Positions 14,607-52,799 of a stretch of 64,000 bases of DNA are shown here, piece after piece. Made by a program: the position numbers and the translations under genes. Below the pieces are notes generated by a model. That model made no database searches, was not told the origin of the DNA, and saw only the letters and a program-made list of their open reading frames with translations. The stretch comes from Salipiger sp. CCB-MM3 (GTDB lineage Bacteria > Pseudomonadota > Alphaproteobacteria > Rhodobacterales > Rhodobacteraceae): positions 1,566,001-1,630,000 of the forward strand of contig NZ_CP014595.1 of the NCBI RefSeq assembly GCF_001687105.1, in the 5' to 3' direction. Numbering within the stretch: the first letter of the stretch is position 1; each line of letters begins with the position of its first letter.

Positions 14607-14638
14607 AAATACTCCCGCCGGAGGCATCCGGCAGGAGT
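14607..14638 (-). terminator. terminator of maeB
   Basis: On the minus strand a 12-base stem (14627-14638 with 14611-14622, one G-T pair) with a four-base loop is followed by ATTTCTG. It lies 12 bases after the maeB stop and shares the GCCGGA...TCCGGCGGG core with the argG terminator. Confidence 0.75.
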
Positions 14639-14650
14639 CATCAATGTGGA

Positions 14651-24204: not shown

Positions 24205-24217
24205 TCCACGTGGAACA
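24202..24217. promoter_or_regulatory. parS: near-consensus parS site at the hemW stop
   Basis: TGATCCACGTGGAACA differs at one position from the palindrome TGTTCCACGTGGAACA and contains the hemW TGA. It is 240 bases beyond the 3' end of parB. Confidence 0.65.
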
Positions 24218-25362: not shown

Positions 25363-25390
25363 TTCTGCCCTCTCGTGACGTATTTTTTGG

Positions 25391-28678: not shown

Positions 28679-28686
28679 GTGAAACA
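28671..28686. promoter_or_regulatory. parS: parS site 2 (perfect palindrome)
   Basis: A second exact TGTTTCACGTGAAACA, spanning the mnmG start codon and 1.9 kb from parS site 1. Confidence 0.92.
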
Positions 28687-28690
28687 CTCC

Positions 28691-29974: not shown

Positions 29975-29998
29975 CCCCGCCTCCTTTGCGGTTTATGT

Positions 29999-33826: not shown

Positions 33827-34511
33827 GATCGTTCTCGACACTGAAACCACTGGCTTCGAGCCGGAACAGGGCGACCGTATCGTCGAGATCGGCGCGGTCG
33901 AGCTTTATAATCACGTGCCGACGGGCAAGGTCTATCACCAGTACATAAACCCCGAACGCTCGATGCCGCAGGAGGCGTTCGAGGTGCACGGGCTGGGCGA
34001 TGATTTCCTGCGAGACAAGCCTGTGTTTGCCAAAATCGTCGATGAGTTCATTGCCTTCGTCGGCACCGATGCCAAGCTGGTCATTCACAACGCCACGTTC
34101 GATGTGAAATTTCTCAATGCCGAGTTGAAATGGGCGAACCGACCGCAGCTTCCGAAAGATTGCGCCATCGACACGCTGATGATCGCGCGCAAGAAATTTC
34201 CCGGCTCTCCGGCGTCGCTGGATGCGCTCTGCCGCCGTTTCGGCATCGACAACTCTAGCCGGACGCTGCACGGCGCGCTGCTCGACAGTGAGATTCTGGC
34301 GGAAGTCTATCTGGAACTGATCGGTGGCAAGCAGCCGGATCTGGTGCTCGCGCCGGTGTCTTCGGGCCGCAATGCATCCGGCGGGGACGAAGAATGGCGT
34401 CCGCAGCGCCGGGCGCAGCCCCTGCCCTCGCGCCTGACCGAAGAAGAAAAGGCGGCTCACGCCGCCTTTGTCGAGAAACTCGGAGAAAACGCGCTGTGGT
34501 CGCGGGGCTGA
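33819..34511 (+). CDS. dnaQ: DNA polymerase III epsilon subunit (proofreading exonuclease)
   Basis: 3'-5' exonuclease of the replicative polymerase (230 residues). ExoI motif [20 protein letters not shown] carries the catalytic Asp/Glu, ExoII is [14 protein letters not shown], and ExoIII is [18 protein letters not shown]. The C-terminal tail is Arg/Pro-rich, as in alphaproteobacterial homologues. It is the last gene of the maf operon; the stop codon falls in a GCGGGGC/GCCCCGC hairpin that could aid termination. Confidence 0.95.
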
Positions 34512-34527
34512 CGCCCCGCATCCAAGC

Positions 34528-35049
34528 TTAGGCGTCGAGCTTGCGCTCTTCGCCAGCCGCCGCAGCAGCCTGCTGACGGCGCGCGATCTCGTTGCGGTAA
34601 AGCGCGACGAAATCGATGGTCTCGAGGTTAAGCGGCGGGAAGCCACCGTCACGGGTTACGTCCGACACGATGCGGCGCACGAACGGGAAGAGCATCCGCG
34701 GGCACTCGATCAGCAGGAACGGGTGCAGTTGCTCTTGCGGCACGCCTTCGATGTTGAAGACACCGGCGTAATCCAGTTCGAGAAGGAACAGCATGTCGCC
34801 GTTCGACTTCGACTTGGACTCGACCTTCAGCTTCAGCACCACTTCGTACTGGTTCTCGGCCGAGCGCTTCTTAGCGTCGAGGTTGACCTGAACCTGAACG
34901 TCAGGCTGCACGTCGCCGCTGACACCTTTCTGCGCGAGGATGTTCTCGAAGCTCATGTCGCGCACGAACTGCGCGAGCACGTTCATCTTCACCGGTGCCG
35001 GGGTCTGTTCTGCGGCGGCAGCGCCGTTCTCGGTTGCTTCTTCAGCCAT
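34528..35049 (-). CDS. secB: protein-export chaperone SecB
   Basis: Tetrameric chaperone that keeps preproteins unfolded for SecA (173 residues). Core blocks include FVRDMSFENILAQKG, LDYAGVFNIEGVPQEQLHPF and LLIECPRMLFPFVRRIVSDV, the last being the strongest SecB signature. The ATG at 35049 is preceded by CAGGAG. It converges on dnaQ, completing the known oriC-flanking gene set. Confidence 0.96.
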   Translation of the reverse strand: MAEEATENGAAAAEQTPAPVKMNVLAQFVRDMSFENILAQKGVSGDVQPDVQVQVNLDAKKRSAENQYEVVLKLKVESKSKSNGDMLFLLELDYAGVFNIEGVPQEQLHPFLLIECPRMLFPFVRRIVSDVTRDGGFPPLNLETIDFVALYRNEIARRQQAAAAAGEERKLDA

Positions 35050-35102
35050 GGAAAGCTCCTGTTGGAATTTTGTATACCGAATAGCAGCCCGGGATAGGCG
35101 GC

Positions 35103-35633
35103 TCAATGCTTAGTCCAGCCTGACCCCGGGTGATTGGCACGTTTCGACGGGGGGACCTCGGTATAGTCGCCCTCGATCACATCATCTTCGCGCGGGCCGG
35201 GACGATAGCGTTCCGCTTGCGGCCCCTGATGCGCGCCGGGACCGGCCTGCGTGCGCGGCCCCTGCCCACCCATTTCAAAGCGCTGTACCTTGATCCGGGT
35301 CGAGATGAACCGCATCACCGCGTCGCGCACCGCCGGGATCAGCAGCGCGAACCCGCAGGCATCGGTAAAGAAACCGGGGGTCAGCAGCAGCGCGCCGGAA
35401 AACAGGATCATCGCGCCATGCGCCAGCGGCCGCGTCGGATCCTGCAGCTGCGAGAACGAGTTTTGCAGGTCAGACAACGCCCGCAGCCCTTCGCGCCGCA
35501 CAAGCGCGGTGCCCAAGATGGCGGTCAGCAGCACGATCATCAGCGTTGGCCAGAGCCCGATAAGCCCCCCGACCTGAATGAACAGTGCAATCTCGATCAG
35601 CGGCACTGCGACGAATGCCAGAAAAAGCCACAT
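35103..35633 (-). CDS. fxsA: FxsA-family membrane protein
   Basis: Inner-membrane protein of 176 residues. The N-terminal PLIEIALFIQVGGLIGLWPT is the FxsA signature, followed by two further hydrophobic segments (TLMIVLLTAILGTALV, then LLTPGFFTDACGFALLIP). The C-terminal 60 residues are soluble, rich in Gln, Pro and charged residues. FxsA relieves phage-T7 exclusion in E. coli; its normal role is unclear. The ATG at 35633 has GGAG upstream, and a long upstream extension of the frame is antisense to the neighbouring gene. Confidence 0.88.
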   Translation of the reverse strand: MWLFLAFVAVPLIEIALFIQVGGLIGLWPTLMIVLLTAILGTALVRREGLRALSDLQNSFSQLQDPTRPLAHGAMILFSGALLLTPGFFTDACGFALLIPAVRDAVMRFISTRIKVQRFEMGGQGPRTQAGPGAHQGPQAERYRPGPREDDVIEGDYTEVPPSKRANHPGSGWTKH

Positions 35634-35738
35634 GGCCTCACTCCTTTTTCGCTGAGCGTGCACCGGTAGACTTGGCGCCGCCCAGTGCCTACATAGGAAG
35701 GCACCGATGAATTTTCCATGTTTGCCCATGAGGTGCCG

Positions 35739-36398
35739 ATGAATATGCCGATCGTCCAGCTGCTGGTTCTTGCCGCGATCGCGATCTTTTTGATCCTGCG
35801 CCTGCGCAGCGTGCTGGGCACACGCGACGGTTTCGAGAAGCCTCCTGTGCAGGCACCGGCCTCGCGCGATACCGCCCGCCGTGACTTCGAGGTGATCGAA
35901 GGCGGACCCGACCACGACATCATCGACCATGTGCCCGAGGGCAGCCCCTCGGCAGAGGCGCTGGCCAAGATGAAGGCGGCTGAGCCGAGCTTCAACGTCG
36001 GCGAATTTCTTGGCGGTGCCCGTGGCGCCTATGAGATGATCCTCATGGGGTTCGAGCGCGGCGAGGTCGAGGAACTGAAGCCTTTCCTTGCGCCCGAAGT
36101 CTATGACAGCTTTGCCGAGGTGGTCGAAAGCCGCCGTCAGCAGGGTCTGACCATTGAGGCCGAGTTTGTCGGCGTGCGCGAGATGACCCTCGCCGAAGCG
36201 ACTTTTGACGAGGTCACGAAACTGGCCGAGATCACCGTGCGCTACACCGGCGAGCTGACCTCTGTGGTGAAAGATGCGACCGGAGCAGTCATCGAAGGCA
36301 GCCCAACTTCGGTGAAACGTCAGAAGGACGTCTGGACCTATGCCCGTAACATGGGTAGCGACGATCCGAACTGGCAGCTGGTCGCGACCGACGAATGA
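35739..36398 (+). CDS. Tim44/TimA-domain membrane-anchored protein
   Basis: A 219-residue protein with one N-terminal membrane anchor (PIVQLLVLAAIAIFLILRL) and a C-terminal Tim44-like domain (GEFLGGARGAYEMILMGFER, then the ITVRYTGELTSVV region). Tim44 is the mitochondrial import motor anchor; bacterial TimA relatives are envelope proteins of uncertain role. The ATG at 35739 follows GAGG. It lies beside secB and fxsA and is coupled by four bases to mltA. Confidence 0.87.
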   Translation: MNMPIVQLLVLAAIAIFLILRLRSVLGTRDGFEKPPVQAPASRDTARRDFEVIEGGPDHDIIDHVPEGSPSAEALAKMKAAEPSFNVGEFLGGARGAYEMILMGFERGEVEELKPFLAPEVYDSFAEVVESRRQQGLTIEAEFVGVREMTLAEATFDEVTKLAEITVRYTGELTSVVKDATGAVIEGSPTSVKRQKDVWTYARNMGSDDPNWQLVATDE

Positions 36399-37465
36399 GG
36401 CGCGCGATCCGGGCGGCCGTGCTGACAGGAGCAATGCTGACAGGTGCCATGGCCGCTGCGGAGAGCGAAACCAGCTACGAGATCCTGAGCTTCGGCGATC
36501 TCGACGGATGGGCGACGGATGATCATTCCGCCGCCCTTTCGGTTTTTCTGAACACATGTGGCGACATGAACGATCCCGACTGGGGATCGCTCTGCGCTCT
36601 GGCCCGAGACACCGATGACGCGCGCGGCTTCTTTGAGTTGCTGTTCCGTCCGGTGCTGATCTCGGGCGCGCCCGAGGATGCCGAGGAAGAAGGCCATGAC
36701 GGGCTGTTCACCGGCTATTTCGAGCCCGAGCTGAACGGTGCGCTGCAGCCGGACGAGCGCTATGCCTATCCGATCTACAGCCTGCCCCCAGAGATTGGCG
36801 AGACCGAGGGGCCGTGGCTGTCGCGCCGCGACATTCTCAGCGGCGACGTGATGAAGGATCGCGGGCTCGAGATCGCTTGGGTCGATGATCCGGTCGAGCT
36901 TTTCTTTCTGCAGGTTCAGGGCTCGGGGCGCATTCGTCTGCCCAATGGCCATCATCTGCGCGTCGGTTATGGCGGTGCCAATGGCCACCCCTACCGCTCC
37001 ATCGGCAAAGAGCTGGTCACCCGCGGCACCTTCGATCTGCATCAGGTGTCGGCGCAGGTGATCAAGACTTGGGTGCGTGAGAACCCCGAGGCCGGGCTGG
37101 AGCTGCTCTATCACAATCCCTCTTACGTCTTTTTCCGGGAAGTCAGCGAAGTTCCGGCCGAGCTTGGCCCGCTTGGCGCGATGAACCGCTCGATCACGCC
37201 GCTGCGCTCGATCGCGGTCGATCCTGCCTATGTGCCGCTGGGCGCACCGGTGTGGATCGAGAAAGAAGGCGCCGAGCCCATGCACCGGCTGATGATCGCG
37301 CAGGACACCGGCTCGGCGATCAAGGGACCGCAGCGCGCTGATATCTTCATGGGTACCGGCGATGAGGCCGGGCGCCGTGCTGGCACGATGAAGGATCCGG
37401 GGCGGCTGGTGGTGCTGCTGCCGATCCAGCGCGCCTATGCGCTCTTGCCGGAGTCGGTGCTTTGA
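36395..37465 (+). CDS. mltA: membrane-bound lytic murein transglycosylase A
   Basis: Peptidoglycan-cleaving lytic transglycosylase (356 residues). A signal peptide covers about residues 1-21 (MRRAIRAAVLTGAMLTGAMA). The MltA domain includes GLFTGYFEPELNGAL and FFLQVQGSGRIRLPNG. The C-terminal 3D domain carries AQDTGSAIKGPQRADIFMG with the catalytic aspartates. No lipobox Cys is seen, so it is exported but perhaps not a lipoprotein. It overlaps both neighbours by four bases. Confidence 0.95.
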   Translation: MRRAIRAAVLTGAMLTGAMAAAESETSYEILSFGDLDGWATDDHSAALSVFLNTCGDMNDPDWGSLCALARDTDDARGFFELLFRPVLISGAPEDAEEEGHDGLFTGYFEPELNGALQPDERYAYPIYSLPPEIGETEGPWLSRRDILSGDVMKDRGLEIAWVDDPVELFFLQVQGSGRIRLPNGHHLRVGYGGANGHPYRSIGKELVTRGTFDLHQVSAQVIKTWVRENPEAGLELLYHNPSYVFFREVSEVPAELGPLGAMNRSITPLRSIAVDPAYVPLGAPVWIEKEGAEPMHRLMIAQDTGSAIKGPQRADIFMGTGDEAGRRAGTMKDPGRLVVLLPIQRAYALLPESVL

Positions 37466-38070
37466 GCCGCCGAAAGCTGCGTCCCGACGAGGTGGAACTG
37501 TGGGAGATGGTGGCCCGCAGCGCCGAGAAGCTGCCCGGTCGCAAAGTGACGCCCGAGACCCCTGCCCCGAAGTCCGCGAAACCCAAGACCTCCAAGCTGC
37601 GCAAACCGCTGCCGCCGCCGCGCGATCCGATGGGCGATTTCGCCCTTGGGGCCCGCGCGCCGAGCCCGGCGGAACGGCATGATTTCTACGCCTCCACTTC
37701 GGACCGGCTGGCCAAGGACCCGGTGCGCATGGACGCCAAGGCCTTTGGCCGCCTGAAGCGCGGCAAGCTGCAACCCGAGGCGCGGCTCGACCTGCATGGC
37801 ATGACGCTGGATCAAGCGCATGGCGAATTGGCGCGGTTCATCCTTGGCGCGCAGCTGCGCGGCTTTCGTCTGGTGCTGGTGATAACCGGCAAGGGCATGC
37901 GCGAGGACCCGCATGATCCGATGCCGCGCCGCCGCGGTGTGCTCAAGACGCAGGTGCCGCAATGGCTGCGGATGCCGCCCGTGGGCCAATGCGTGCTGCA
38001 AATCTCCGAGGCCCATATCAAGCACGGCGGTGGCGGGGCCTATTACGTCTATCTCAAGCGGCGGCGGTAA
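37462..38070 (+). CDS. Smr-domain protein
   Basis: A 202-residue protein with a basic, Pro-rich N-terminal half and a C-terminal Smr domain. The motif LDLHGMTLDQAHGELARFI and LVITGKGMREDP are the nuclease-type signatures found in MutS2 tails and stand-alone Smr proteins. Probable nucleic-acid binding or nicking role. The start appears to be TTG overlapping the mltA stop as TTGA; no ATG precedes the conserved N-terminus. Third gene of the Tim44-mltA-Smr operon. Confidence 0.9.
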   Translation: MSRRKLRPDEVELWEMVARSAEKLPGRKVTPETPAPKSAKPKTSKLRKPLPPPRDPMGDFALGARAPSPAERHDFYASTSDRLAKDPVRMDAKAFGRLKRGKLQPEARLDLHGMTLDQAHGELARFILGAQLRGFRLVLVITGKGMREDPHDPMPRRRGVLKTQVPQWLRMPPVGQCVLQISEAHIKHGGGGAYYVYLKRRR

Positions 38071-38087
38071 CGCGGGCCGCCCGTCCC

Positions 38088-38603
38088 TCAGCCGAGGATC
38101 ATCTCAGCGTGGTCGGCAAGATAGATGCGCAGCCACGGGGTAAACGCCTCTGGCTCTGCGGCGATGCGGGCGCGCAACGCATCGAGCGACAGCCACTCGG
38201 TCTGCATCACTTCCTCGGGGTTCGGCGCGGGCTCGACCCCTGCCCCAACCTCGGCGACATAGATCTCGACCACCTCATGCTCGGTCATGCCGCCCCCCAC
38301 TTCGGCGCGGTATTCGACCTGCCCGCGGTGTTGCGGCTCCAGCGCCTTCAGCCCAAGCTCTTCATCGAGCCGCCGAATGGCGCAGTCGCGTGGCTCTTCG
38401 CCCCAATGCGGATGGGTGCAGCAGGTGTTCGCCCAAAGGCCCGGCGTGTGGTACTTCCCAAGGGCGCGGCGCTGCAGCAGCGTCTGCCCATCGCGCATGA
38501 CAAAGACCGACACAGCCTTGTGCCGCAGCCCCTTGAGATGCACGTCGAGCTTGTCCGCCGGAGCCAGTTGGCCGTCGATCCAAGCGGGAATGTCCTGCGC
38601 CAT
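38088..38603 (-). CDS. idi: isopentenyl-diphosphate delta-isomerase (type 1)
   Basis: Interconverts IPP and DMAPP for isoprenoid synthesis (171 residues). Type 1 IDI motifs are visible: the catalytic cysteine segment LWANTCCTHPHWGEE, the Nudix-like AIRRLDEELGL, and EYRAEVGGGMTEHEVVEIY with the active-site Glu residues. The ATG at 38603 follows AAAGGAGG. It converges on the Smr gene and stands alone. Confidence 0.95.
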   Translation of the reverse strand: MAQDIPAWIDGQLAPADKLDVHLKGLRHKAVSVFVMRDGQTLLQRRALGKYHTPGLWANTCCTHPHWGEEPRDCAIRRLDEELGLKALEPQHRGQVEYRAEVGGGMTEHEVVEIYVAEVGAGVEPAPNPEEVMQTEWLSLDALRARIAAEPEAFTPWLRIYLADHAEMILG

Positions 38604-38753
38604 GCCGCGCCTCCTTTCGAGGCGTCTGTTTCCTCTGCCGCGGCCGCAAGGTCAAGAAGCACGATTTCCTCTCGCGCTGGCATTAGGTCGCAGCGCATGG
38701 TGCAACAATGTGGTCTAGGAAGGTCTCACGGAGACGCGCAACGGGAGATGGTC

Positions 38754-39170
38754 ATGAAAACCAAGATGATTTTGAGCTTTGCCCTGCTCGCTATGGCGGG
38801 CACCGCACAGGCCGAAGGCGATGTCGAGGAAGGCAAGAAAACCTTCGAACGCCGCTGCCGGGCCTGTCACATGATCCAGGATGACGCCGGTGAGGCGATC
38901 CAGCGCGGCGGGCGCACCGGTCCGAACCTTTTTGGAGTGGTTGGCCGCACCGCTGGCACCGAGGACGGCTTTCGCTATCGCGACTCCATCGTCGAAGCTG
39001 GCGAAAAGGGTCTGGTCTGGGACGAAGCGTCGCTCGAGGCCTACGTGCAGGACCCCAGCGGGTTTCTGCAAGAGTTCCTCGACGATAAAAGCGCGCGCTC
39101 CGGCATGACCTTCAAACTGCGCGAAGGCATGGAAGACGTTTACGCCTACCTCGCGACTTTCTCAAACTAA
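38754..39170 (+). CDS. periplasmic class I cytochrome c
   Basis: Soluble c-type cytochrome, 138 residues, with a signal peptide (about residues 1-20, ending GTAQA). The haem-binding motif CRACH is near residue 35, and the distal axial methionine is probably in SGMTFKL near residue 119. The GRTGPNLFGVVGR segment is typical of the c2/c550 group, electron carriers of the respiratory chain. The ATG at 38754 follows GGGAG; another ATG lies two codons upstream. A bidirectional terminator follows. Confidence 0.9.
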   Translation: MKTKMILSFALLAMAGTAQAEGDVEEGKKTFERRCRACHMIQDDAGEAIQRGGRTGPNLFGVVGRTAGTEDGFRYRDSIVEAGEKGLVWDEASLEAYVQDPSGFLQEFLDDKSARSGMTFKLREGMEDVYAYLATFSN

Positions 39171-39215
39171 GCGGCACCGAGGCGGCATTGCGCCCGCGAA
39201 CACACCGCAAATCAA

Positions 39216-39250
39216 AAGGGGCGCTCCGGTTGGAGCGCCCCTTCTTCTGT
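39216..39250. terminator. bidirectional terminator
   Basis: A perfect 12-base stem AAGGGGCGCTCC (39216-39227) pairs with 39232-39243 over a GGTT loop. It serves the cytochrome gene on plus and, with a TTTTGATTT tail, the polysaccharide-export gene on minus. Confidence 0.88.
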
Positions 39251-39271
39251 TCAGACCTTTAGATCACACGA

Positions 39272-40399
39272 TCAGAAGGCATTTGCCGCGGCAACACTGC
39301 GCTGCGTGGTGGTCACGCCGCTGTTGACGATGCTGAGCAGCGTCTGCAGCCCTGCGAGCGGGCTTTCGGTCGCCAGAACCACGTCATCGGGGTAAATCTG
39401 GAATTTGCGCGCGGCGAACAATCCGTCGGCGCTGGTCAGATCGAAGGTGAACACCACCTGCTGCATATTCGGCGCGCTGCCGTCCGAGCGCAGTTGCCGC
39501 GGGGAATATTCGCGCAGCACCATGACGCCCTTGGGGTCGGCGCGCACATCATAGAGGCCGCCCATCAGCGACAGCGCCTCGAGCGCGTTCACCTCTTCCT
39601 TCGGGAAATTCACCACGGTCTGCCGCGACGAGGCGCCCATGCCGGTGAAGGTGCGGTCATCTTCTTCGACCACCACCGTATCGCCGGGCAGCAGCAGCGT
39701 GTTGTAAGAGCCGCTTCCCAGCAAGGTGTTGGCGGAAATCTCATAGGTGGCGCCCTGCCGCATCAGGCGCACCAGCGGGTTCTTCATCGAACTGCTGATC
39801 CCGCCTGCATCTGCGATGAGGCCGAGGATCTTATAGTTGCGCGAGGGCATCGCGTAGCTGCCGGGCGAGGAAACCCCACCCACCATCTCGACCGAATTGC
39901 TACGGCCCTGCGTCAGGCTGAGCTGCACCTGCGCGGTCGGCACGATCGCTTCGAGCTTGCTCTGGATGCGCTGCCGGGCCGAGTTCGGGGTCAGGCCGCG
40001 GATGAACACCTCATCCACATACGGCAGGAAAATCGCGCCGTTCGCGCCAACCTCGACATTGGGCATCTCGGTCGATTTCTCGGACGGGTTGGTCAGCAGT
40101 GAATTTTCCTGACTGTCCCAAATGCGGATGTTCACAAGGTCGCCGGTCTGGATGACGCTTTGGTTGGCGCCGGTCGAGGTGCCAAGCCAGTTGCGATCCA
40201 TCTCGGGGCCGGTGCGCGGCCACGATGCAATCAGCGGCATATTGGCCCGCGTCACATCAATCACCTGAAAGCTGGGATATTCGGCGTCGGCCTCTGACAG
40301 AACCTCGGATTGCACGGCGGCGCCGCGAGGCAGCGAACAGCCTCCGAGAATGGCAACGCCAGCAACTAGGGCAATCAGGTTACGCGAGAGTTTCGACAC
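39272..40399 (-). CDS. Wza-like outer-membrane polysaccharide export lipoprotein
   Basis: Polysaccharide export protein (375 residues). The lipoprotein signal ends in ILGGC, giving acylation at about residue 22. The Poly_export domain (TGDLVNIRIWDSQENSL, FLPYVDEVFIRGLTPNSARQ) is followed by SLBB-type repeats (VEMVGGVSSPGSYAMPSR and LLLPGDTVVVEED). The start is a GTG at 40399 with GGAG at the right distance; no ATG fits. It diverges from a sugar transferase gene and likely forms the outer-membrane pore for the exopolysaccharide. Confidence 0.9.
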   Translation of the reverse strand: MSKLSRNLIALVAGVAILGGCSLPRGAAVQSEVLSEADAEYPSFQVIDVTRANMPLIASWPRTGPEMDRNWLGTSTGANQSVIQTGDLVNIRIWDSQENSLLTNPSEKSTEMPNVEVGANGAIFLPYVDEVFIRGLTPNSARQRIQSKLEAIVPTAQVQLSLTQGRSNSVEMVGGVSSPGSYAMPSRNYKILGLIADAGGISSSMKNPLVRLMRQGATYEISANTLLGSGSYNTLLLPGDTVVVEEDDRTFTGMGASSRQTVVNFPKEEVNALEALSLMGGLYDVRADPKGVMVLREYSPRQLRSDGSAPNMQQVVFTFDLTSADGLFAARKFQIYPDDVVLATESPLAGLQTLLSIVNSGVTTTQRSVAAANAF

Positions 40400-43972: not shown

Positions 43973-44159
43973 CCTGCCCTCACCTGCCCTTGAACTTGCC
44001 CTGACGTCTTTTGCCCAGAGCTAGAGCTTTCTCTGCGCTCTGTCCATTCATCCCGGCGGCGCAAAGCAGCAACTGTGGGATCCTCGGCACGTCGGGTTCA
44101 GCGGTCTGCGGGCTCTCTACGCGGCCTCTGGCCGCGGAAATTGTCCTCATTTGGAAGTT

Positions 44160-44175
44160 TTAAGGCAGGGGTAAC
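44160..44175. promoter_or_regulatory. CtrA-like box upstream of motB
   Basis: TTAA-N7-GTAAC, one mismatch from TTAA-N7-TTAAC, 45 bases before the motB ATG. Confidence 0.45.
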
Positions 44176-44220
44176 CGCGCGCGCCTATTGCTGGTGTGGG
44201 GTGTTTGGAAGGTGGTGGAT

Positions 44221-45057
44221 ATGGCCGTCGACAGTAATGTCGCGCCAGTCATCATCAAGCGGAAGAAAAAGGGTGGCGGCCATGGGCATCATGGCGGCGC
44301 CTGGAAGGTCGCCTATGCGGATTTCGTGACGGCGATGATGGCTTTCTTCATGCTGATGTGGCTGCTCAACGCGACGACCGAGAAACAGCGCAAGGGGCTG
44401 GCGGATTACTTCAACCCAACGATCGCGGTGGCGCGGATATCGGGCGGCGGAGACGGGCTCATGGGAGGCGAGAGCACCTTTTCCGAGAACGTGCTGCCGC
44501 GCATGGGCACCGGCTCGACCTCGCTTCAGGCGACAGAGATGCATGCGGCGCGGGGCAGCGTGAGTTCCGGTACCGCCGAGCCCGATGCCGCCGAAGAGGC
44601 CGCGCTCGAGGAACTGCGGGACCGGCTCACCGGGCGTCATGGCGAAAGCATGGTCGATGACGGGCTGATGCGGCATGTGGTGACGCGGGTCACCGATGAG
44701 GGGCTGGTGGTCGAACTGTTCGAAACCGCCGATGCGCCGCTGTTCGAGCCTGACGGCAGCCCGACATATCTGCTGCAGCGGCTGTCGCAGATCATCGCCG
44801 GGGCGGCGGAAATGGTGCGCAACCCGCTGGCCATCGAAGGCCATGTGCCCGCCGCACCGATCGTTCTGGCACGGGATTCCTCGTGGGAAAGATCGGCGGA
44901 CCGGGCCGGGCAGATGCGTGCGTTGCTGGGTCAGGCGGGGGTTCCGAAAGGGCGCATCGCGCGGGTTACCTCGCATGCGGACCGCGAGCCTGCGCGCGCC
45001 AACCCGATGGACCCGCGCAACGGCCGTATCGAGGTGATCTTCCTGCGACAGCGTTGA
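44221..45057 (+). CDS. motB: flagellar motor stator protein MotB
   Basis: Stator subunit that couples ion flow to flagellar rotation and anchors to peptidoglycan (278 residues). A basic, His/Gly-rich N-terminus precedes the single membrane helix ADFVTAMMAFFMLMWLL, whose Asp at about residue 34 is the ion-binding site. The C-terminal OmpA-like half is divergent but includes LAIEGHVPAAP and NPMDPRNGRIEVIF. The ATG at 44221 follows GGAAGGTGG. motA is not adjacent. Confidence 0.9.
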   Translation: MAVDSNVAPVIIKRKKKGGGHGHHGGAWKVAYADFVTAMMAFFMLMWLLNATTEKQRKGLADYFNPTIAVARISGGGDGLMGGESTFSENVLPRMGTGSTSLQATEMHAARGSVSSGTAEPDAAEEAALEELRDRLTGRHGESMVDDGLMRHVVTRVTDEGLVVELFETADAPLFEPDGSPTYLLQRLSQIIAGAAEMVRNPLAIEGHVPAAPIVLARDSSWERSADRAGQMRALLGQAGVPKGRIARVTSHADREPARANPMDPRNGRIEVIFLRQR

Positions 45058-45125
45058 AGGGCCGGCTTCGGCTCTCAAGGTGGTTCACACGGAGCGCGCT
45101 GGCGAAGTCGTAGGGATTTTACCTG

Positions 45126-45142
45126 TTAGCGCGGCGTTAAAC
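45126..45142. promoter_or_regulatory. CtrA-like box upstream of flgE
   Basis: TTAG-N7-TTAAAC in the motB-flgE gap, 55 bases before the flgE ATG. The pattern matches the one upstream of the flagellin fragment. Confidence 0.5.
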
Positions 45143-45197
45143 CCGCGCCCCTAGTCTCGGAGGGGACGGGAACAGGTGACAGCAGAAAGGCGCGTCT

Positions 45198-46730
45198 ATG
45201 ACCATCTCTTCGTCTCTCAACGCAGGTGTTTCGGGGCTTACGGCGAATGCCAGTCGGCTGGCGGCGATCTCGGACAATATCGCCAATTCCTCGACCTACG
45301 GCTACCGGCGGGCCGAAACCGAGTTCAACTCGCTCGTGATGACCGATGGCGGTCGCTCCTATACCGCGGGCGGGGTGATGTCTTCGAACATTCGGCTTGT
45401 GGATCAAAAAGGATCGCTCGTCACCACCAGCAATGCCACCGATCTTGCGGTGCGGGGCAGGGGGATGCTGCCGGTGGTTTCCGGCCCGCAGTATGAGGCG
45501 AGCCCCGGAGAGCCGGAGCTTTTGCTCACCTCGACGGGCTCCTTTCGCATAAACGAGGATGGCTATCTAGCGAATGAGGCCGGGTATTTCCTGCTGGGCT
45601 GGCCTGCGGACATCGATGGCACCATCCCGAACTTCCCGCGCGATACGGTGGATGGGCTGGAGCCGGTGCAATTCAGCCTGAACCTGCAGGGCGATCCGAC
45701 CACCGCTGTTGAGATGAGCCTTAACCTGCCAGCCACCGCGACGATGGATGATTCCGACGGGGCCTCGGAAACCCTGTCGGTCGAGTATTTCGACAATCTC
45801 GGCGTGTCGCAGAATATCTCGATGACCTTTACGCCGACGGTTCCGGCGACCGGCATGTCCAACGAATGGACCATCGTGATGACCGACAGCGCCTCCGCCG
45901 GGGCGGTGATCGGCGAATATGTTGTGACCTTCGACGCCACGCGGGGCAGCGGCGGCACGATCAACGCGGTCACCACGGTGACCGGCGGGGCCTATAGTGG
46001 CGCGACAGGTCTGTTGACGGTCGATGTGGACGGCGGGCCGATCGTGTTCGACATCGGCGCCATCGGCGACAGCAACGGGCTCTCGCAGCTCTCCAACAGC
46101 TTCGCCCCCATTGCCATCACCAAGGACGGCTCGCCGGTGGGCAATATGGTCTCGGTCGAGGTCGACGAGAATGGCTATGTGAACGCGCTCTACGACAGCG
46201 GGGTCAGCAAGACGCTCTACCAGATCCCGCTCGCCGATCTGCCCAACCCCAATGGCATGATCCCGATGGACAACCAGACTTTCAAACCCTCACCGGAAAG
46301 CGGCTCCTATTTCCTTTGGGACGCGGGGGATGGACCGACGGGCGACATCAAATCCTTCGCCCGCGAGGAATCGACCACCGATGTGGCGCAGGAACTGACC
46401 GACATGATCCAGACCCAGCGGGCCTATTCCTCGAACGCCAAGGTGATTCAGACGGTCGCGTTATCCTTGGCGTTGGCGACGCTTTTGCCTGTGGAGATCT
46501 CTCCTTGGGTCGTGGCCAGGTTCATATTTATAGACTTGAGGGTCTGCAGCGCGACCATCGCGCCATTGTTCGTCAGTATGCTAGACATAGGTTTTCGTCC
46601 TTGGATTCGACGCTTTGCGCCATTTTGCCATCGGCCGCCGCAGCCCTGCCGCCGCGGCCCCTTCGGACGTCGTTCTGACGAAGCAGCCGGAGAGCCTGTC
46701 CCCCTGCGCCATCCACATGGGATGCTGTGA
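45198..46730 (+). CDS. flgE: flagellar hook protein FlgE with replaced C-terminal end
   Basis: Residues 1 to about 420 are a normal hook protein: N-terminal [20 protein letters not shown], the flagellar rod/hook signature [15 protein letters not shown], and the C-terminal helix [19 protein letters not shown]. After the valine codon at 46455 the expected dozen or so final residues are missing. About 90 unrelated residues follow, encoded antisense to a flagellin 5' end and its leader, to a stop at 46728-46730. The missing D0 helix end should disturb hook packing, so the gene is probably non-functional. The ATG at 45198 follows AAAGG. Confidence 0.88.
46448..46588 (-). pseudogene. fliC: flagellin, 5' fragment only
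   Basis: On the minus strand, an ATG at 46588 with AAGGA upstream opens [19 protein letters not shown], continuing with [20 protein letters not shown], the unmistakable flagellin N-terminal D0 segment. After 46 residues the frame hits TGA at 46448-46450, where the sequence becomes antisense flgE. The remaining 220 or more residues of a flagellin are absent. The fragment overlaps the foreign tail of flgE on the opposite strand. Confidence 0.9.
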
Positions 46731-46803
46731 CACGTTAGGCCTGCGTTCCTTAAGGCATCGCTAAACGCCGTGAGGATTTCGCCCCGGGTTCACGTCTGTT
46801 CAC
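46589..46803 (-). other. flagellin leader and promoter region
   Basis: The 215 bases between the flagellin fragment and flgN hold no gene. A CtrA-like box lies at 46751-46765, and GC-rich inverted segments follow toward the flagellin start. It is part of the frame that extends flgE on the plus strand. Confidence 0.5.
46751..46765. promoter_or_regulatory. CtrA-like box upstream of the flagellin fragment
   Basis: On the minus strand TTAG-N7-TTAA, the same form as upstream of flgE, 163 bases before the flagellin ATG. Confidence 0.45.
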
Positions 46804-47184
46804 CTAGAGTTTTCTGTGAATTCTCTTTTGTGCGGTGGAACCGATCCGCGTTTTCTGCCCGGACGGACCGTAGATTTCCATATCGCTGAGCAGCGCCTCT
46901 GGCTGAGCGATGCGCGCCTTCACCTCTTGAAGCCCGCGAAGCGCCGCCTCGAGCAGCCGATGATTGCGTTTCAGCGCGGGCGCCAAAGTCGGGGTATCAA
47001 GCAGCGCCATGGAGTTGCTGGACAGATGCGAAAGCAAGGCCTCTTTCTGGCGCGCTATCTGATCGAGAGCCTCCAGGCGTCCACTCAGGATGGCATCGCG
47101 CTCACCTTGCAGCAAAGCGAGCAATGTTTCAGAAGTTGCTGCTGCGCGCCTAAGTTGCGTCAGCCGCGGAGATGGTCCCGTCAT
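46804..47184 (-). CDS. flgN: FlgN-like flagellar export chaperone
   Basis: A 126-residue, mostly helical protein (LRRAAATSETLLALLQGERD, then RQKEALLSHLSSNSMALL), fitting the FlgN fold: a coiled-coil chaperone for hook-filament junction proteins FlgK and FlgL. The assignment rests on size, helical pattern, flagellar context and the conserved ERDAILSGRLEAL-type segment. Its ATG overlaps the stop of the rod-binding gene (ATGA). FlgK and FlgL are not in the window. Confidence 0.75.
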   Translation of the reverse strand: MTGPSPRLTQLRRAAATSETLLALLQGERDAILSGRLEALDQIARQKEALLSHLSSNSMALLDTPTLAPALKRNHRLLEAALRGLQEVKARIAQPEALLSDMEIYGPSGQKTRIGSTAQKRIHRKL

Positions 47185-47399
47185 TCGCTGAGCATCTCTT
47201 GCGGCAAAATCTGCAGATTGTCCGCGATCTTTGTCGCGAACTCTTCGCGAAGATACGATGAAAATTGGCCTTCTCCGGCGCCACCTCCAAAGTTTCCGCG
47301 AGCGGAGAACGCCCCGGAAAATTGAAGCATCTGTGACACATAGAGGCGGTTAAGAAGTGCATTAGCGCCGCCCGCGCCAGCGACGGGAACTTCGGGCAT
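47181..47399 (-). CDS. rod-binding protein (CheL/FlgJ N-terminal type)
   Basis: A 72-residue protein matching the FlgJ N-terminal rod-binding domain, which exists as a stand-alone gene (often called cheL) in alphaproteobacteria. The region QMLQFSGAFSARGNFGGGAG followed by FSSYLREEFATKIADN is characteristic. It caps the rod during flagellar assembly. It is short compared with typical homologues; an upstream in-frame extension in another frame is not convincing. It diverges from fliK. Confidence 0.75.
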   Translation of the reverse strand: MPEVPVAGAGGANALLNRLYVSQMLQFSGAFSARGNFGGGAGEGQFSSYLREEFATKIADNLQILPQEMLSE

Positions 47400-47453
47400 A
47401 GTGGCATCCTCCGATCAAATGTCGTCTCGTAGGGGATATATAAAATGACTTCG

Positions 47454-47469
47454 GTAAAGTAATTGTTAG
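47454..47469. promoter_or_regulatory. CtrA-like box between the rod-binding gene and fliK
   Basis: On the minus strand CTAA-N7-TTTAC, two mismatches from TTAA-N7-TTAAC, in the divergent gap. Confidence 0.3.
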
Positions 47470-47513
47470 TTCGTGGCGTATATTTCTCCTTCAAGTTCTA
47501 GAGGGATATGAAG

Positions 47514-50435
47514 ATGAAATCATCACCTGACCTTAGAAGTGTGCAAGTTGCTAAGAGGCCTCTTGAATTGAGTTTATCGCTGTCTAGAACCGAGGTTGGC
47601 TTGCTTCACACGTCAAGTGGTCTTCGGCAATTTAATGGTTTAGATGATATATTTTCGGGACTTGTTCATAATTATGGAGTTGAGGTGGTTGACGAGCGCA
47701 AAGAGGAATCGATCAACGCCGCAGCTGAGGGGCGCCCTAAAAATTGGTTGAAATATTTTGGACACGAACCTACATTGATTTATGATAGGGGGTATTTAAT
47801 TAAAACTGCTTCGAGGAATTTAGTGGTTGGGTGCGGTATAAATGTTGAAATGCATTCAGATAAATTGTTCCATAACAGGGATGTTTTGGAAGATTTTGAA
47901 AGTCAAGGCTTAGAGTTTCGTGGTTCTGGGGTTAAGAAAGGCTTAAATTTCTTTGGTCTCTCGGATTTTGAAGGTCAGCAGGATCTAGACTTTGATTATT
48001 GGTCGTATCCGCAAATATTGCCTATAGAAGTTACTTACTTTATATTTGATAACCACATCATCTTAGGTGCGTATGAAGCTGAAGAGTGGATTTATTTCGT
48101 AACTGAAGGTGGGGAATTTTCGAATGGAGGTGAGAGTGATTGTGCTGCCGAGGCCCCTTTAAATATTAAATATATAATAGGTGAGGGTTTAGTTCAGGCG
48201 GGCGAAGACTCAAAAATTGCAAGACTCCATTCCGCTAAGCCTAGCGAGGGATATTCTAAATATCACAATTTTTCTTTCAAACTATCGAGAAAATATAATC
48301 CTAAACATGAAAGTAATACAGATAATTCAGGAAATCTGTTTATATGCCAAGCTAAGGAGGTGTACGACTGCAGTGATAAAGCAATTCTACAGGGTCCTGA
48401 CGTTTTAGATAAGACTGGTCGGATCTTGAAACCTGGGAAGAGTCTCGCGAGCGGAGAAGTCTTTGGGTTAGAGGTAAAGCGTATAGTACCATTCATACCA
48501 AAGACGAGACCGGTTATCTTCAACTTAGACATGTCCAGTCAAATGACGCCTTTTGTCCAGGAAGCGATTGAACTTCGATCAATATTATTGAATGAGGCCG
48601 ATAAGGAGTATGAGCAGGAGATGAAATTTCCTCATTCTATAGCTCATGAGGAAAGTGCTGGTAAGGAAAATGCTCGTGCCCAGTCAATCGATCAGATAAG
48701 TCGGGCGGATTTGAACTCGTCGGATACGGAAAGGTCTATCGAGGGGAGGAAATTAAAGAGTTCGCTGCGAGGGGATCGCATTGCACCGGTGCCAGCTAGC
48801 CATTCCGAAAAGAGCGTAACTTTCTCAAGTCCGATAGAATCTCTCTCCTTATTTCCAGAACTTGATAGTGGATACGCCAAACAGATCCAAGAGGGAATAC
48901 ATTCGGTTGCGTGGCAAAAATTGCCAAGGGACGCCATCCGAAAAGATAATTTTTATGGTCTTATGTTCGCGACACCGCGAATTGAATGCGAGGAGGACGG
49001 GCTGGAGTCAACGAACGTCAGCCATAAACACGTTATTGGGCGGAGACAGGGAGGCTCAGCCGATGTCATGAGCGCCAAAGATATCTTGGCCGCTCGGAAC
49101 ACCTCTGATCTGATCTCGGCACTCAAAGGCGATAGTCTTAAGCATATTGAAGCCTCCGATTATCCGAAATCCGACGCTTCGAATGCAATTTTCTCAAGAA
49201 TAGTTCTGGTTCGGCAGGACCCAGCCAGCCTAGAAGGAGGTCTGCTTGGGCCTGTAGAGAGACCCGCCGAGCAGCTTGATACCTTGCAATCGCAGCGATC
49301 GGCGCCGGAGGCAGCGGAGAAGAAGCGAAGATTATCTGCAGATGTGGTCGGGAAAATCAGGACCGGGCAAGAAGCTCTTTTTGAAGAGCTCGTTTCAATG
49401 GATGCGAAGTCCAATGGTGTCCGTTTCGCGGAAGTGTCAATTCCGCCAGATCGTCCTTCGCGGACAGAGCCAGTGCTCTGGCGCGCAGGGCGAGATGGGG
49501 TTCTCGAGGATGCCACTGACATCCCTGCAGGAACGAAAGGACAAAAGAAAAGTGATGTTTGTGAGAGTGCGGTAACGTTTACCCCTCCGGCGCCCCAATT
49601 GAAAACCGAACGTTGGCAGAGGCCCGAACTGGGTCCCCGGCCCAGCCAAGAGGTTAGAGCGGGGCTGAAGGCACTTGTTCGGCGGCGCCAAATCGAAAAT
49701 GTGAGAATGGATAAAGCCATACCGGGAGAGCCGCAGAGTGCGCGCGCAGAGACAGCTCCATTCAAGGCAAATTTTGTGCCGCGGCGACCCCAGCCAGCGG
49801 CGGCTTCAGCCTCGAATAGGGTACCTTTTGAGGTGGGGGGACAGCGCATAGCAGAAACAAGCGCTCCGGCTCGACAGCCGCGGGGCGTAGCGGCGAACTC
49901 ATTTGACGAGCGCCCAAGCCCAGAACTCGGGCAACCCTTAGGTGCCGAAGAAATGGCTGACCCGTCAGTGGTGTTGTCAACTGCCTCTGCGCAAACCGAG
50001 ACACGAAGCATCGCGGCGGCCAAAGAGGGGCATCCTGCGCCGAAAACCCAACCGCAGATTCGCCAGCTTGCCGAGGCGATCATTGGCGCGGAAGAGGGTA
50101 GCGTGGAATTGCAACTCGAGCCGGAAGAGCTTGGCAGGGTCAGTTTCAACGTGAAGCATTCCGACCAAGGAGTCACCTTGCATATCACCGCTGATCGGCC
50201 CGAGACGCTGGAGCTTCTGCGGCGCCACGCGGAGCAACTGGCGCGGTATCTTCAGGAGCATGGCTATCAGAACAGCAGCTTTTCTTTCGCGGGGGGGCGT
50301 TCGGGTCGGCAGTCAGCGCCCCAAAAGTTACGCGATGCAGGGCCGCGCCTTGCGTCGGTAGAGACGAATCCGTCGGTCACCTTGGCCGCGGAATCGAAAC
50401 GGCACGCATCGGATGGGTTGGATCTCAGGCTTTGA
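47514..50435 (+). CDS. fliK: flagellar hook-length control protein FliK, AT-rich N-terminal half
   Basis: A 973-residue protein whose C-terminus is the FliK Flg_hook domain (QIRQLAEAIIGAEEGSVELQ, then LEPEELGRVSFNV and a following ITADRPETLELLRRHAEQL). This part interacts with FlhB to end hook growth. The first 480 or so residues are unlike other FliK proteins, with an aromatic-rich stretch (IEVTYFIFDNHIILGAYEAE) and no recognised domain. Bases 47500-48960 are only about 30-40% GC by hand counts of sample lines and use rare AT-ending codons; the rest rises to the local norm. The ATG at 47514 is eight bases after GAGGG; an ATG two codons earlier is too close. Confidence 0.85.
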   Translation: MKSSPDLRSVQVAKRPLELSLSLSRTEVGLLHTSSGLRQFNGLDDIFSGLVHNYGVEVVDERKEESINAAAEGRPKNWLKYFGHEPTLIYDRGYLIKTASRNLVVGCGINVEMHSDKLFHNRDVLEDFESQGLEFRGSGVKKGLNFFGLSDFEGQQDLDFDYWSYPQILPIEVTYFIFDNHIILGAYEAEEWIYFVTEGGEFSNGGESDCAAEAPLNIKYIIGEGLVQAGEDSKIARLHSAKPSEGYSKYHNFSFKLSRKYNPKHESNTDNSGNLFICQAKEVYDCSDKAILQGPDVLDKTGRILKPGKSLASGEVFGLEVKRIVPFIPKTRPVIFNLDMSSQMTPFVQEAIELRSILLNEADKEYEQEMKFPHSIAHEESAGKENARAQSIDQISRADLNSSDTERSIEGRKLKSSLRGDRIAPVPASHSEKSVTFSSPIESLSLFPELDSGYAKQIQEGIHSVAWQKLPRDAIRKDNFYGLMFATPRIECEEDGLESTNVSHKHVIGRRQGGSADVMSAKDILAARNTSDLISALKGDSLKHIEASDYPKSDASNAIFSRIVLVRQDPASLEGGLLGPVERPAEQLDTLQSQRSAPEAAEKKRRLSADVVGKIRTGQEALFEELVSMDAKSNGVRFAEVSIPPDRPSRTEPVLWRAGRDGVLEDATDIPAGTKGQKKSDVCESAVTFTPPAPQLKTERWQRPELGPRPSQEVRAGLKALVRRRQIENVRMDKAIPGEPQSARAETAPFKANFVPRRPQPAAASASNRVPFEVGGQRIAETSAPARQPRGVAANSFDERPSPELGQPLGAEEMADPSVVLSTASAQTETRSIAAAKEGHPAPKTQPQIRQLAEAIIGAEEGSVELQLEPEELGRVSFNVKHSDQGVTLHITADRPETLELLRRHAEQLARYLQEHGYQNSSFSFAGGRSGRQSAPQKLRDAGPRLASVETNPSVTLAAESKRHASDGLDLRL

Positions 50436-50463
50436 GCCATTGGGGAGCGGGAAAGGAGTAGAG

Positions 50464-51132
50464 ATGGAGATCACAGCAGCGGACCTCTCACAGGTCAGCG
50501 GTGGCGCGGCGGGCGTTGAGGCGACCGAAGCGGCGACACTCAGCGGCGATTTTGAGACCTTCCTCAAGATGCTGACAACTCAAGCGCAAAATCAGGATCC
50601 ATTCAATCCGGTAGACGCCACCGAATATGCCTCGCAACTGGCCAGCTTTTCTACTGTGGAACAACAGGTTCTGACAAACGAACTTCTGTCCAACCTCACG
50701 CAGATCGCGACCGGCAGCGGTCTCGAGCGTCTGGCTGGCTGGATTGGGATGGAGGCGCAGACGGTCGGCGCGGCCTATTTCGACGGAGCATCTGTCGAAT
50801 TGTTCACAAACGTGCCGGAAGATGCGCAAAGCGGCGTACTGGTCATCCGAGGTGCCGATGGCACGCTCCATAACCGAATCGCTCTGGAGGCGGGAACCGA
50901 GACGTATCTCTGGGATGGCAGTGATCTTGCCGGCGCCAGGGTTTCAGAGGGTGTCTATGAGGTCGAACTGGAGGTGTATCGCGATGATATCCTTGATGAA
51001 ACGCGTGAGGTTGGCGCGTATCTGCGGGTCAATGAGGTGGCCCGGCTGGATGATGTGAACATTCTGACGCTGCGCGGCGGTGTGATGCGTGAGGTCGCGG
51101 AGGTGACAGCCTTGCGGCGCGCAGAGGCGTGA
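50464..51132 (+). CDS. flgD: flagellar hook-cap assembly protein FlgD
   Basis: Hook scaffold protein, 222 residues. The N-terminal FLKMLTTQAQNQDPFNPVDA and EYASQLASFSTVEQQVLTNE are the FlgD signature. A FlgD-Ig/tudor-like C-terminal part follows (LWDGSDLAGARVSEGVYEVE). The ATG at 50464 follows AAAGGAG. It lies 28 bases after fliK and is probably in the same operon. Confidence 0.93.
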   Translation: MEITAADLSQVSGGAAGVEATEAATLSGDFETFLKMLTTQAQNQDPFNPVDATEYASQLASFSTVEQQVLTNELLSNLTQIATGSGLERLAGWIGMEAQTVGAAYFDGASVELFTNVPEDAQSGVLVIRGADGTLHNRIALEAGTETYLWDGSDLAGARVSEGVYEVELEVYRDDILDETREVGAYLRVNEVARLDDVNILTLRGGVMREVAEVTALRRAEA

Positions 51133-51266
51133 GCCTACGCGGCAACGGCCTTTCGGGCGGCTACGGTCTGCGTCCGTCAGCAGTCCAATCGGTAGAAGTC
51201 CAAGCGTTAGAGCATGTGCGCCGCGCGGCGTCACCGGCTACTGCGGATAAGTGGCCGGAGACACGA

Positions 51267-52799
51267 TCAGAGAATGGACATCAGGATCAACGTGCCGCCG
51301 GCGCCGGTCAGGAGTCCGGCGATCCCCCAGCCGAGGCGCCGGGTCCATTTCGACTCAAGCTCGTCGGCAAGCCCTTGCGTCTGGCGGACCAGCGCATCTT
51401 CGACCAAACCGGGCAGACGGGGGCCGAAACGGGCCATGACGCGCGCGGTCTTGGCAAAATCGCGCAGTGCTGCGCGCGGGCCGATCGAGGTCTTGATGTA
51501 TTGCTCGACCACCGGGCGGGCGACGCTCCAGATGTTCATATGCGGGTTCAGCGAGCGGGCCACGCCCTCGACCACCACCATGGTGCGCTGCAGCAGGATC
51601 AGCTCGGTGCGGGTTTCCATGCCGAAACGCTCGGTGACCTCAAAGAGGTAGTTGAGCAGCCGGCCCATGGAAATGCGCGTCGAATCCATGCCGAAGATCG
51701 GCTCGCCCACCGCGCGCAGGGCGCGCGCAAACTCATCGACGTCGCGGTCGGCGGGCACATAGCCCGCCTCGAAGTGCACCTCGGCCACGCGCCGGTAATC
51801 GCGGCGAATGAACCCATAGAGAATCTCGGCGTAAACCCGGCGGGTGTATTCGTCGATATGCCCCATGATGCCGAAGTCATAGCCGATGATGTCGCCATTG
51901 GGCGCCACCTTCAGGTTGCCCTGATGCATATCGGCGTGGAAAAATCCGTCGCGCAGCGCGTGGTTGAGGAAGAGCTGCAGCACCCGTTCGCTCAGCGCGA
52001 CGCGGTCATGCCCGGCGGCGTCGATCGCGGCATTGTCGCCAAGCGGCACGCCCTCGGCCCAGCTCATGGTCATCACGCGGCGGCCCGACAAGCCCCAGAT
52101 CACTTCGGGCAGCTGAAAGCCCTCGTCATCCACAGTGTTTGCGGCGAATTCGCTGGCAGAGGCGCTTTCGAGCCGCAGGTCCAGCTCGCCGTTCACCACG
52201 CCCTCGAAATGGGCGATCACATCGCGCGGACGCAGACGGCGCGACGCGGGAGAAAGGAAGTTGATGGCATCGGCGGCCAGCCAGAAGGCGTCGATATCCT
52301 TGCGGAAGGCGCGTTCGATTCCCGGACGCAGCACTTTGACCGCAACGGTTTCGCCGGTCTCGGTGAGGCGCGCCTTATGCACCTGCGCGATGGAGGCGGC
52401 GGCTACGGGCGGGCTGAACTCCGAGAAAACCTCGGAGACCGAGACGCCAAGCTCGGCTTCAATCTGGGTTTTCGCGGCCTCGGTGGGGAAGGGCGGCAGC
52501 TTGTCCTGCAGCACCCGAAGCTGGTTGGCCAGATCCTCGCCCACCACGTCGGGGCGGGTCGAGAGCACCTGACCGAATTTGATATAGGCGGGTCCCAATG
52601 CCGAAAGCGCACGGGTCACCGGCGGCATCGCGGGATCGCCCTCGTAGCCGAGCCATTTGAACGGCTTGGCGATGATTCTCGACGCGGCGCGCAGCATCGG
52701 CGGCGCGTCCAGCGCGTCGAGTACCACGCTCATCGCGCCGGTCCGCTCGAAGGTGGCGCCGGTGCGCACCAGCCGCCAGATGTTGTGGGGACCCTTCAT
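51267..52799 (-). CDS. ubiB: ubiquinone biosynthesis kinase-like protein UbiB
   Basis: Atypical protein-kinase-like ATPase needed for ubiquinone synthesis (510 residues). The KxGQ motif lies in [15 protein letters not shown], the A-rich loop in [15 protein letters not shown], and the catalytic-loop/DFG-like residues in [11 protein letters not shown] and IGYDFGIMG. Two C-terminal hydrophobic segments ([20 protein letters not shown]) anchor it. It starts one base after ubiE ends. Confidence 0.95.

What the first reader, a model, noticed from the sequence alone, without database searches (positions are those of the whole stretch)
46430..46600. flgE joined head-on to a reversed flagellin 5' end
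flgE is normal to about codon 420, then reads antisense through the first 46 codons of a flagellin gene. Both genes lose their 3' ends at the same place. The junction holds CAGACGGTCG (46449-46458), which fits the expected codons of both genes, and AACGCCAAGG occurs inverted on both sides (46434 and 46469 regions). A deletion between convergent genes at a short homology would create exactly this and would remove everything between them; an inversion or assembly chimera would too.
Basis: partly seen in the sequence, partly recalled or inferred. Interest (0 to 1): 0.75.

Follow-up and report, generated by a model that had tools for sequence, protein, structure and literature searches.

The report
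Repeated identical deletion of flagellum genes
A block of swimming genes has been cut out of this bacterium's chromosome, leaving two gene stumps joined head to head, and the same cut, to within a base or two, is found in dozens of related species that seem to have lost the block separately, which chance deletion does not readily explain.

Summary
flgE, lacking its last 12 codons, runs into the reversed start (43-46 codons) of a flagellin gene. Relatives with an intact chromosomal fla1 cluster have the two genes convergent and 20.6-21.7 kb apart, so this is a deletion of the flagellar core, not an inversion or chimera.

It is not private. The same join is in 4 of 20 genomes of the genus, 13 of 394 sampled across the family, and 51 named records bearing 25 genus names. 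Fused species sit among intact sisters. If loss is irreversible, the flgE tree needs 24 separate deletions (17 with weak branches collapsed).

In 22 of 22 fused genomes found without selecting for it, the join keeps flgE's T at position 8; nearest intact relatives narrow the crossover to one or two bases. The shared repeat scores only 6-8, and 268-2738 nearby repeat pairs score as well but were not seen used in three genera surveyed. Leftover genes are mostly open and flgE shows no relaxed selection, so the events look young.

Best reading: a recurrent, site-preferring deletion of fla1; what sets the site is unknown. This genome keeps a second (fla2-like) flagellar cluster on another contig.

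The parts
44188..45057 (+). motB (fla1 remnant, left of the deletion)
   Evidence: Pfam MotB_plug 6.7e-21
45198..46458 (+). flgE without its last 12 codons; the frame stays open to 46730 (510 codons) by reading antisense through the flagellin piece
   Evidence: Pfam Flg_bb_rod, FlgE_D2, Flg_bbr_C; comparison with intact flgE of relatives
46449..46458 (.). junction block CAGACGGTCG; crossover most likely after base 46457 or 46458
46448..46588 (-). flagellin 5' end, 46 open codons plus stop
   Evidence: Pfam Flagellin_N 6.8e-6; one search finds it as a 43-position match
46434..46443 (+). left arm AACGCCAAGG of the inverted repeat (judged not needed)
   Evidence: right arm absent in G387, G421, G426
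46465..46474 (+). right arm CCTTGGCGTT of the inverted repeat (judged not needed)
46804..47184 (-). FlgN-like gene (remnant)
   Evidence: Pfam FlgN 9.9e-6, below the curated cut-off
47508..50435 (+). fliK (remnant)
   Evidence: Pfam Flg_hook 1.6e-17
50413..51132 (+). flgD (remnant, right end of fla1)
   Evidence: Pfam FlgD 3.5e-18 and FlgD_ig

Best explanation
The locus is the scar of a deletion of about 21 kb that removed the core of the chromosomal fla1 flagellar cluster, from codon 421 of flgE to about codon 44-46 of the convergent flagellin gene. The same deletion, with the same crossover to within one or two bases, has arisen many times separately in the family and looks young where it was examined. 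How it works (inferred): DNA ends or strands at a preferred spot near the 3' end of flgE are joined to a preferred spot in flagellin; a short imperfect repeat (CCAGAC-N-G-Y-N-G) aligns them and the join falls at its right edge with one to three matching bases. Cells that lose fla1 are sometimes favoured or tolerated, so the product gets sampled, while old scars decay and are no longer recognised. Shown: the deletion, its recurrence, the fixed join, absence of the core. Inferred: independence of the events (assumes fla1 is not regained) and youth. Not shown: why this site.
For: Intact arrangement in relatives. Core absent from all 4 fused genomes of the genus, and no fla1-type FlgI in 55 fused entries (53 distinct genomes), with the intact control positive. 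Same join in 13 of 394 family genomes, 5 of 8 Limimaricola, 3 of 13 in the genus of G387, 51 named records. Polyphyly: 4 changes on the gyrB and flgE trees of the genus; 24 losses on the 91-row flgE tree, 23-25 in 5-95% of 200 bootstrap trees, 17 with weak branches collapsed. T at position 8 in 22 of 22 fused genomes not selected for it. No excess of nonsynonymous change on fused tips. Published: fla1 is inherited vertically and lost sporadically (PMC11974857, sections 6 and 12).
Against: The homology at the site is no better than 268-2738 other pairs nearby, so repeat-guided joining does not by itself explain why this site is used. If strands annealed across the repeat and mismatches were repaired at random, C at position 8 should appear; it did not. 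Intact sampling outside three genera is about one genome per genus, so independence is counted on a thin tree. Regain of intact fla1 cannot be formally excluded. Detection favours young, well-preserved junctions. The rate of the deletion is unmeasured.
Confidence: 0.78

Rival explanations
1. Enzyme-directed or programmed excision: a recombinase, nickase or topoisomerase of the order recognises both sites and cuts out fla1 at appreciable frequency, a one-way motility switch-off.
For: Fixed crossover with only 1-3 matching bases in many lineages; better repeats nearby not seen used in three genera; events look young and scattered.
Against: No recombinase gene was recognised by eye among the ORFs of the deleted stretch of G018 (not scanned with profiles). 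No excised fla1 segment kept in fused genomes. The two sites show no more base conservation than codons explain, as far as read. The matching dinucleotide differs between cases (CG in G007/G012, GA in G416/G417), unlike a strict two-base core.
Confidence: 0.2
2. One ancient fusion allele, kept or spread by homologous recombination between species; intact sisters regained fla1.
For: Identical join everywhere would follow at once.
Against: Bases beside the join follow each host's own flgE and flagellin (G416/G417, G007/G012, G387 genus), so donor tracts would be only a few bases. The flagellin piece of fused genomes is not closest to that of other fused ones in 3 of 4 cases; G000 is equally close to fused G007 and intact G018. 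fla1 is reported to be vertically inherited (PMC11974857). An ancient scar should have decayed.
Confidence: 0.05
3. The fused remnant has a function and is kept by selection, which fixes its form.
For: flgE open in 43 of 45 assessable named loci, flagellin piece open in 51 of 51, low nonsynonymous change.
Against: motB, fliK and flgD are just as well kept though motA and export genes are gone, so youth explains it better. First breaks are visible: flgD frameshift in G007, motB frameshift in L183, flgE interrupted in L174, L183 and G287. 34 of 53 distinct fused genomes have no FlgI at all.
Confidence: 0.04
4. Assembly chimera or a single accident of this genome.
For: None beyond the junction itself.
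Against: Same join in independent assemblies, including single-contig G159, G287 and G387; missing parts not found elsewhere in the genome.
Confidence: 0.01

Closest known systems
Sporadic independent losses of the fla1 cluster in Rhodobacterales (Tomasch et al., PMC11974857)
   Same: Same cluster, chromosomal, near oriC, vertically inherited, lost now and then in several clades.
   Different: The parts read report absence of the cluster; a shared scar or common breakpoint was not mentioned, and 'remnant', 'pseudogene' and 'truncat' do not occur in its main text.
Deletion hot spots between short direct repeats (lacI of E. coli and similar; from recall, no call)
   Same: Two short direct repeats, one copy left, everything between lost.
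   Different: Here the repeat is imperfect, far from the best available, about 21 kb apart, and the same join recurs across a family instead of within one strain.
Programmed excision of chromosomal elements (skin element, heterocyst nif elements; from recall, no call)
   Same: Fixed crossover, large segment removed from a gene.
   Different: No recombinase recognised, no identical core at the ends, both genes stay broken, no sign of regulation.
Plasmid-borne fla2 clusters (Alloyangia, Salipiger, Marinovum)
   Same: G000 carries a similar cluster on contig C4.
   Different: It is the surviving system, not the finding; 34 of 53 distinct fused genomes have no FlgI of any type.

Membership tests
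fla1 flagellar gene cluster of Rhodobacterales | motB-flgE at one end, fliK-flgD at the other, chromosomal, near the origin | tested here: met
   for the genes; GC skew changes sign inside the window; definition from PMC11974857
fla1 flagellar gene cluster of Rhodobacterales | flgK, flgL, flgI, motA and the rest of the core present | tested here: not met
   core of intact G018 not matched at fla1 identity in G000; FlgI only on C4 at 53% identity. It is a remnant of fla1, not a cluster
deletion between short direct repeats | direct repeat at both parental ends, one copy in the product | tested here: met
   CCAGAC-N-G-Y-N-G at both sites, one in the product
deletion between short direct repeats | the repeat used is among the best available | tested here: not met
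   268-2738 segment pairs score at least as well within 2.6 by 2.6 kb in seven intact genomes
deletion between short direct repeats | crossover within the longest identical stretch | tested here: not met
   position 8 is flgE's T in 22 of 22 fused genomes not selected for it; the longest shared stretch lies to its left
programmed site-specific excision | fixed crossover | tested here: met
   one point after position 9 or 10 fits the cases with a close intact relative
programmed site-specific excision | recombinase encoded by or near the element | tested here: inconclusive
   none recognised by eye in the ORF list of G018; no profile scan made
programmed site-specific excision | high frequency in living cells, reciprocal circle | not testable with these tools
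   one assembly per species, no reads; reciprocal join not seen in G000, the only fused genome among the 31 searched for it

The most novel reading that the evidence does not exclude
Rhodobacterales carry an undescribed sequence-directed DNA breakage-and-joining activity that repeatedly excises the fla1 flagellar core at one fixed pair of bases in flgE and flagellin: a one-way motility switch-off conserved across the family.
Probability: 0.2. Interest if true: 0.92.

Novelty: new variant of a known kind. Interest (0 to 1): 0.75.

Why it matters
Flagella are lost often in evolution, and each loss is usually expected to have its own breakpoints. Here a family of ecologically important bacteria has lost its ancestral flagellum many times by what is, to within a base or two, one deletion that homology does not account for. 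That makes a concrete test possible: measure the deletion in a motile laboratory strain and ask what picks the site. It also gives a PCR-sized marker (the flgE-flagellin join) for recent fla1 loss in isolates and metagenomes, and a warning that intact motB, flgE and flgD annotations do not prove a flagellum.

Tried and rejected
Considered and rejected. Assembly chimera and inversion. A single accident of this genome. Hairpin-assisted slippage through the inverted AACGCCAAGG. Homology alone. Classical lagging-strand slippage: GC skew puts the origin to the left of the locus, so a slipped lagging strand would carry flagellin's C at position 8; the fused genomes have T (inference, from one genome's skew). 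A transferred fusion allele. Selection on the fused genes.

Led nowhere or was mended. The loose pattern (3 mismatches) gave mostly noise and a capped list. Viral contigs: 0 hits. Plasmids: 16 records match parts, none covers 80% of the query. Reciprocal join: only inexact matches, in 11 of 31 genomes. Rfam: nothing in 44000-52000. The site score is wrong because my flagellin offset was one base out; one search replaces it (distances are off by one base). dN/dS across genera is uninformative because dS saturates. In one search one fused locus (L095, G408) was labelled intact by my regex; corrected. My note calls motB of L180 broken; one search shows the stop lies before the likely start, so I withdraw that. 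Two of the 53 hits (L159, L170, Verrucomicrobia) are not flgE and were dropped from counts. Paper searches listed no paper that I recognised as describing this scar; only PMC11974857 was opened (outline with abstract, sections 6 and 7, part 1 of 2 of section 12, one term search), the rest were seen as listings.

Full report
OBSERVATION. flgE begins at 45198 and is normal for 420 codons (Pfam Flg_bbr_C matched to position 36 of 46). Then the + strand is the reverse of a flagellin 5' end: 46588 to 46451 on the - strand encodes 46 residues matching Flagellin_N, followed by a stop. Compared with intact relatives flgE lacks its last 12 codons, and flagellin keeps 43-46 codons of, for example, 436 in G018.

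WHAT IT IS. The window is G000:C1:1566001-1630000 in a genome of 5.5 Mb in 7 contigs. A DNA search of the 20 genomes held for the genus with window 45198-46900 found both genes in all 20. In 4 (G000, G007, G013, G019) they form one continuous match. In the other 16 they are apart: 12 have both on one contig in the convergent arrangement, G014 has both on one contig with one piece turned round, and in G003, G009 and G017 they lie on different draft contigs. In seven intact genomes the two sites are 20.6-21.7 kb apart. The flgK-flgL-flgI-motA stretch of G018 matches over its length in the same 16 genomes (in two pieces in G014); in the fused four only shorter, weaker matches remain, those of G000, G007 and G013 mostly to the fla2-like cluster. 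So the locus is a deletion of the fla1 core. motB, a FlgN-like gene, fliK and flgD stay behind. G000 keeps a second system on the 274-kb contig C4: 20 of its ORFs were scanned and show MotA, MotB, FliK, FlgD, FlgH, a FlgG-type rod protein, FlgE-type, FlgK, two flagellins, FlgI, FliG, FliP, FliF and FliM matches; it resembles plasmid clusters of Alloyangia, Salipiger and Marinovum. Export genes beyond FliP were not checked, and whether the strain swims is unknown.

IT RECURS. A family sample of 394 genomes (393 genera) searched with the junction showed spanning matches in other genera. A pattern that allows T or C at position 8 and one mismatch hit 12 of 394, G000 among them. With G408, found, that makes 13 of 394. 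The 12 other than G000 were checked for flgE and flagellin frames. G159, G287 and G387 are single-contig assemblies. The titles of the 51 bear 25 genus names; 8 bear none. By title 15 are MAGs, 4 are 'uncultured ... isolate', 32 the rest (classified by hand). Taking identical sequences as one, the named records and the G genomes make 58 distinct fused genomes. Limimaricola: 5 fused, 1 intact, 2 without a fla1 flgE match, of 8. The genus of G387, which holds two records titled Roseicyclus: 3 fused, 5 apart (two of them on separate draft contigs), 5 without, of 13; two of those five are under 80% complete.

INDEPENDENCE. In the window's genus the four fused genomes need four changes on a gyrB tree and on a flgE tree; well-supported branches alone force three and four. 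Fused G007 is sister to intact G012 in both (83/95 in gyrB, 100/100 in flgE). Fused G416 is about 3% from intact G417 in flgE. If a lost core is never regained, the 91-row flgE tree (48 fused, 43 intact) needs 24 losses, 23-25 in 5-95% of 200 bootstrap trees. Collapsing branches under 95 and counting each polytomy once leaves 17. That fla1 is inherited vertically and lost sporadically is published (PMC11974857). Against this: outside three genera the intact sampling is about one genome per genus, and regain cannot be formally excluded.

THE JOIN IS FIXED. Number CAGAC as positions 1-5. flgE has T at position 8 in 20 of 20 genomes of the genus, and flagellin has C in 17 of 17 intact genes read. 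Fused genomes found without selecting for T all have T: 13 of 13 in the family sample, 4 of 4 in the genus, 5 of 5 Limimaricola, 3 of 3 in the G387 genus; these sets overlap, 22 distinct genomes. The 51 were selected for T and do not count here. If intact sisters stand for the parents, G007/G012 put the crossover after position 8, 9 or 10 and G416/G417 after 9, 10 or 11, so one point after 9 or 10 fits both. The bases beside it follow each host's own genes, so a shared donor tract would have to be only a few bases long.

HOMOLOGY DOES NOT EXPLAIN THE SITE. With +1 per match and -2 per mismatch the parental sites score 6-8 in seven intact genomes, and 268-2738 segment pairs within 2.6 by 2.6 kb score at least as well, up to 13-14. 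In the three genera surveyed (41 genomes) 12 are fused at this join, 22 have both genes apart, 7 have no fla1 flgE match, and no other flgE-flagellin breakpoint was listed; how the 7 lost fla1 is unknown.

AGE. Polarised codon changes (synonymous/nonsynonymous) on fused and intact tips: G007 27/1 against G012 34/1; G013 30/5 against G012 49/4; G000 45/6 against G018 47/6, but 37/10 against G011 44/7; G019 49/8 against G004 49/10; G416 10/3 against G417 14/3. With about three nonsynonymous sites per synonymous one, a neutral stretch longer than a few percent of these tips should have shown (my arithmetic). The flagellin piece is open in 51 of 51 named loci. flgE is open in 43 of 45 named loci long enough to tell, interrupted in L174 and L183, and interrupted in G287 too. 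motB, fliK and flgD are mostly open, with frameshifts in flgD of G007 and motB of L183. FlgI was sought in 56 genomes (57 asked, one not held): the intact control G417 has a fla1-type one (74%). Of 55 fused entries, 53 distinct since two are seen twice, none has; 19 have a 43-54% identical one and the rest (34 distinct) none. So the deletions look recent and the leftovers unselected.

MECHANISM. The evidence fits a deletion that prefers one pair of bases. I commit, in outline, to repeat-guided joining at preferred break points with loss of fla1 sometimes favoured, and give 0.2 to a dedicated enzyme. The invariant T argues against annealing with random repair. Since the GC skew of C1 changes sign inside the window left of this locus (20 sampled stretches and 8 window blocks), replication probably runs from flgE to flagellin, and T then also argues against slippage of the lagging strand. 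What selects the site is open.

NOVELTY. Independent losses of fla1 are known. A scar common to them was not mentioned in the parts of PMC11974857 that I read, and seven searches of an open-licence library listed none that I recognised. I rate it a new variant of a known kind: a recurrent deletion, but fixed to the base across a family and not accounted for by homology.

Noticed in passing
window 24000-40000: GC skew of contig C1 changes from negative to positive here, so the replication origin probably lies in this stretch, left of the junction.
   Followed up: partly
G000:C4:22000-61800 (L009, L010): Second, fla2-like flagellar cluster on a 274-kb contig, similar to plasmid clusters of Alloyangia, Salipiger and Marinovum.
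   Followed up: partly
window 45198-46730: The flgE frame stays open for 90 codons past the junction, antisense through the flagellin start and beyond; in other fused loci the open stretch counted from the KVI site is 21 to 135 codons.
   Followed up: no
L048 (G007), flgD at about 14591-15257: flgD matches in two reading frames, a frameshift in the leftover of the deletion.
   Followed up: partly
G014:C6: The fla1 cluster is intact but rearranged: flgE and flagellin lie on opposite strands relative to the usual order and motA is turned away from flgI.
   Followed up: no
G005:C3:253090-255603 and G019:C33:247517-250030: The gyrB match of both genomes is reported with one TAG inside.
   Followed up: no
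L159, L170: The 26-base junction pattern also occurs by chance at one similar coding site in two Verrucomicrobia MAG records.
   Followed up: no
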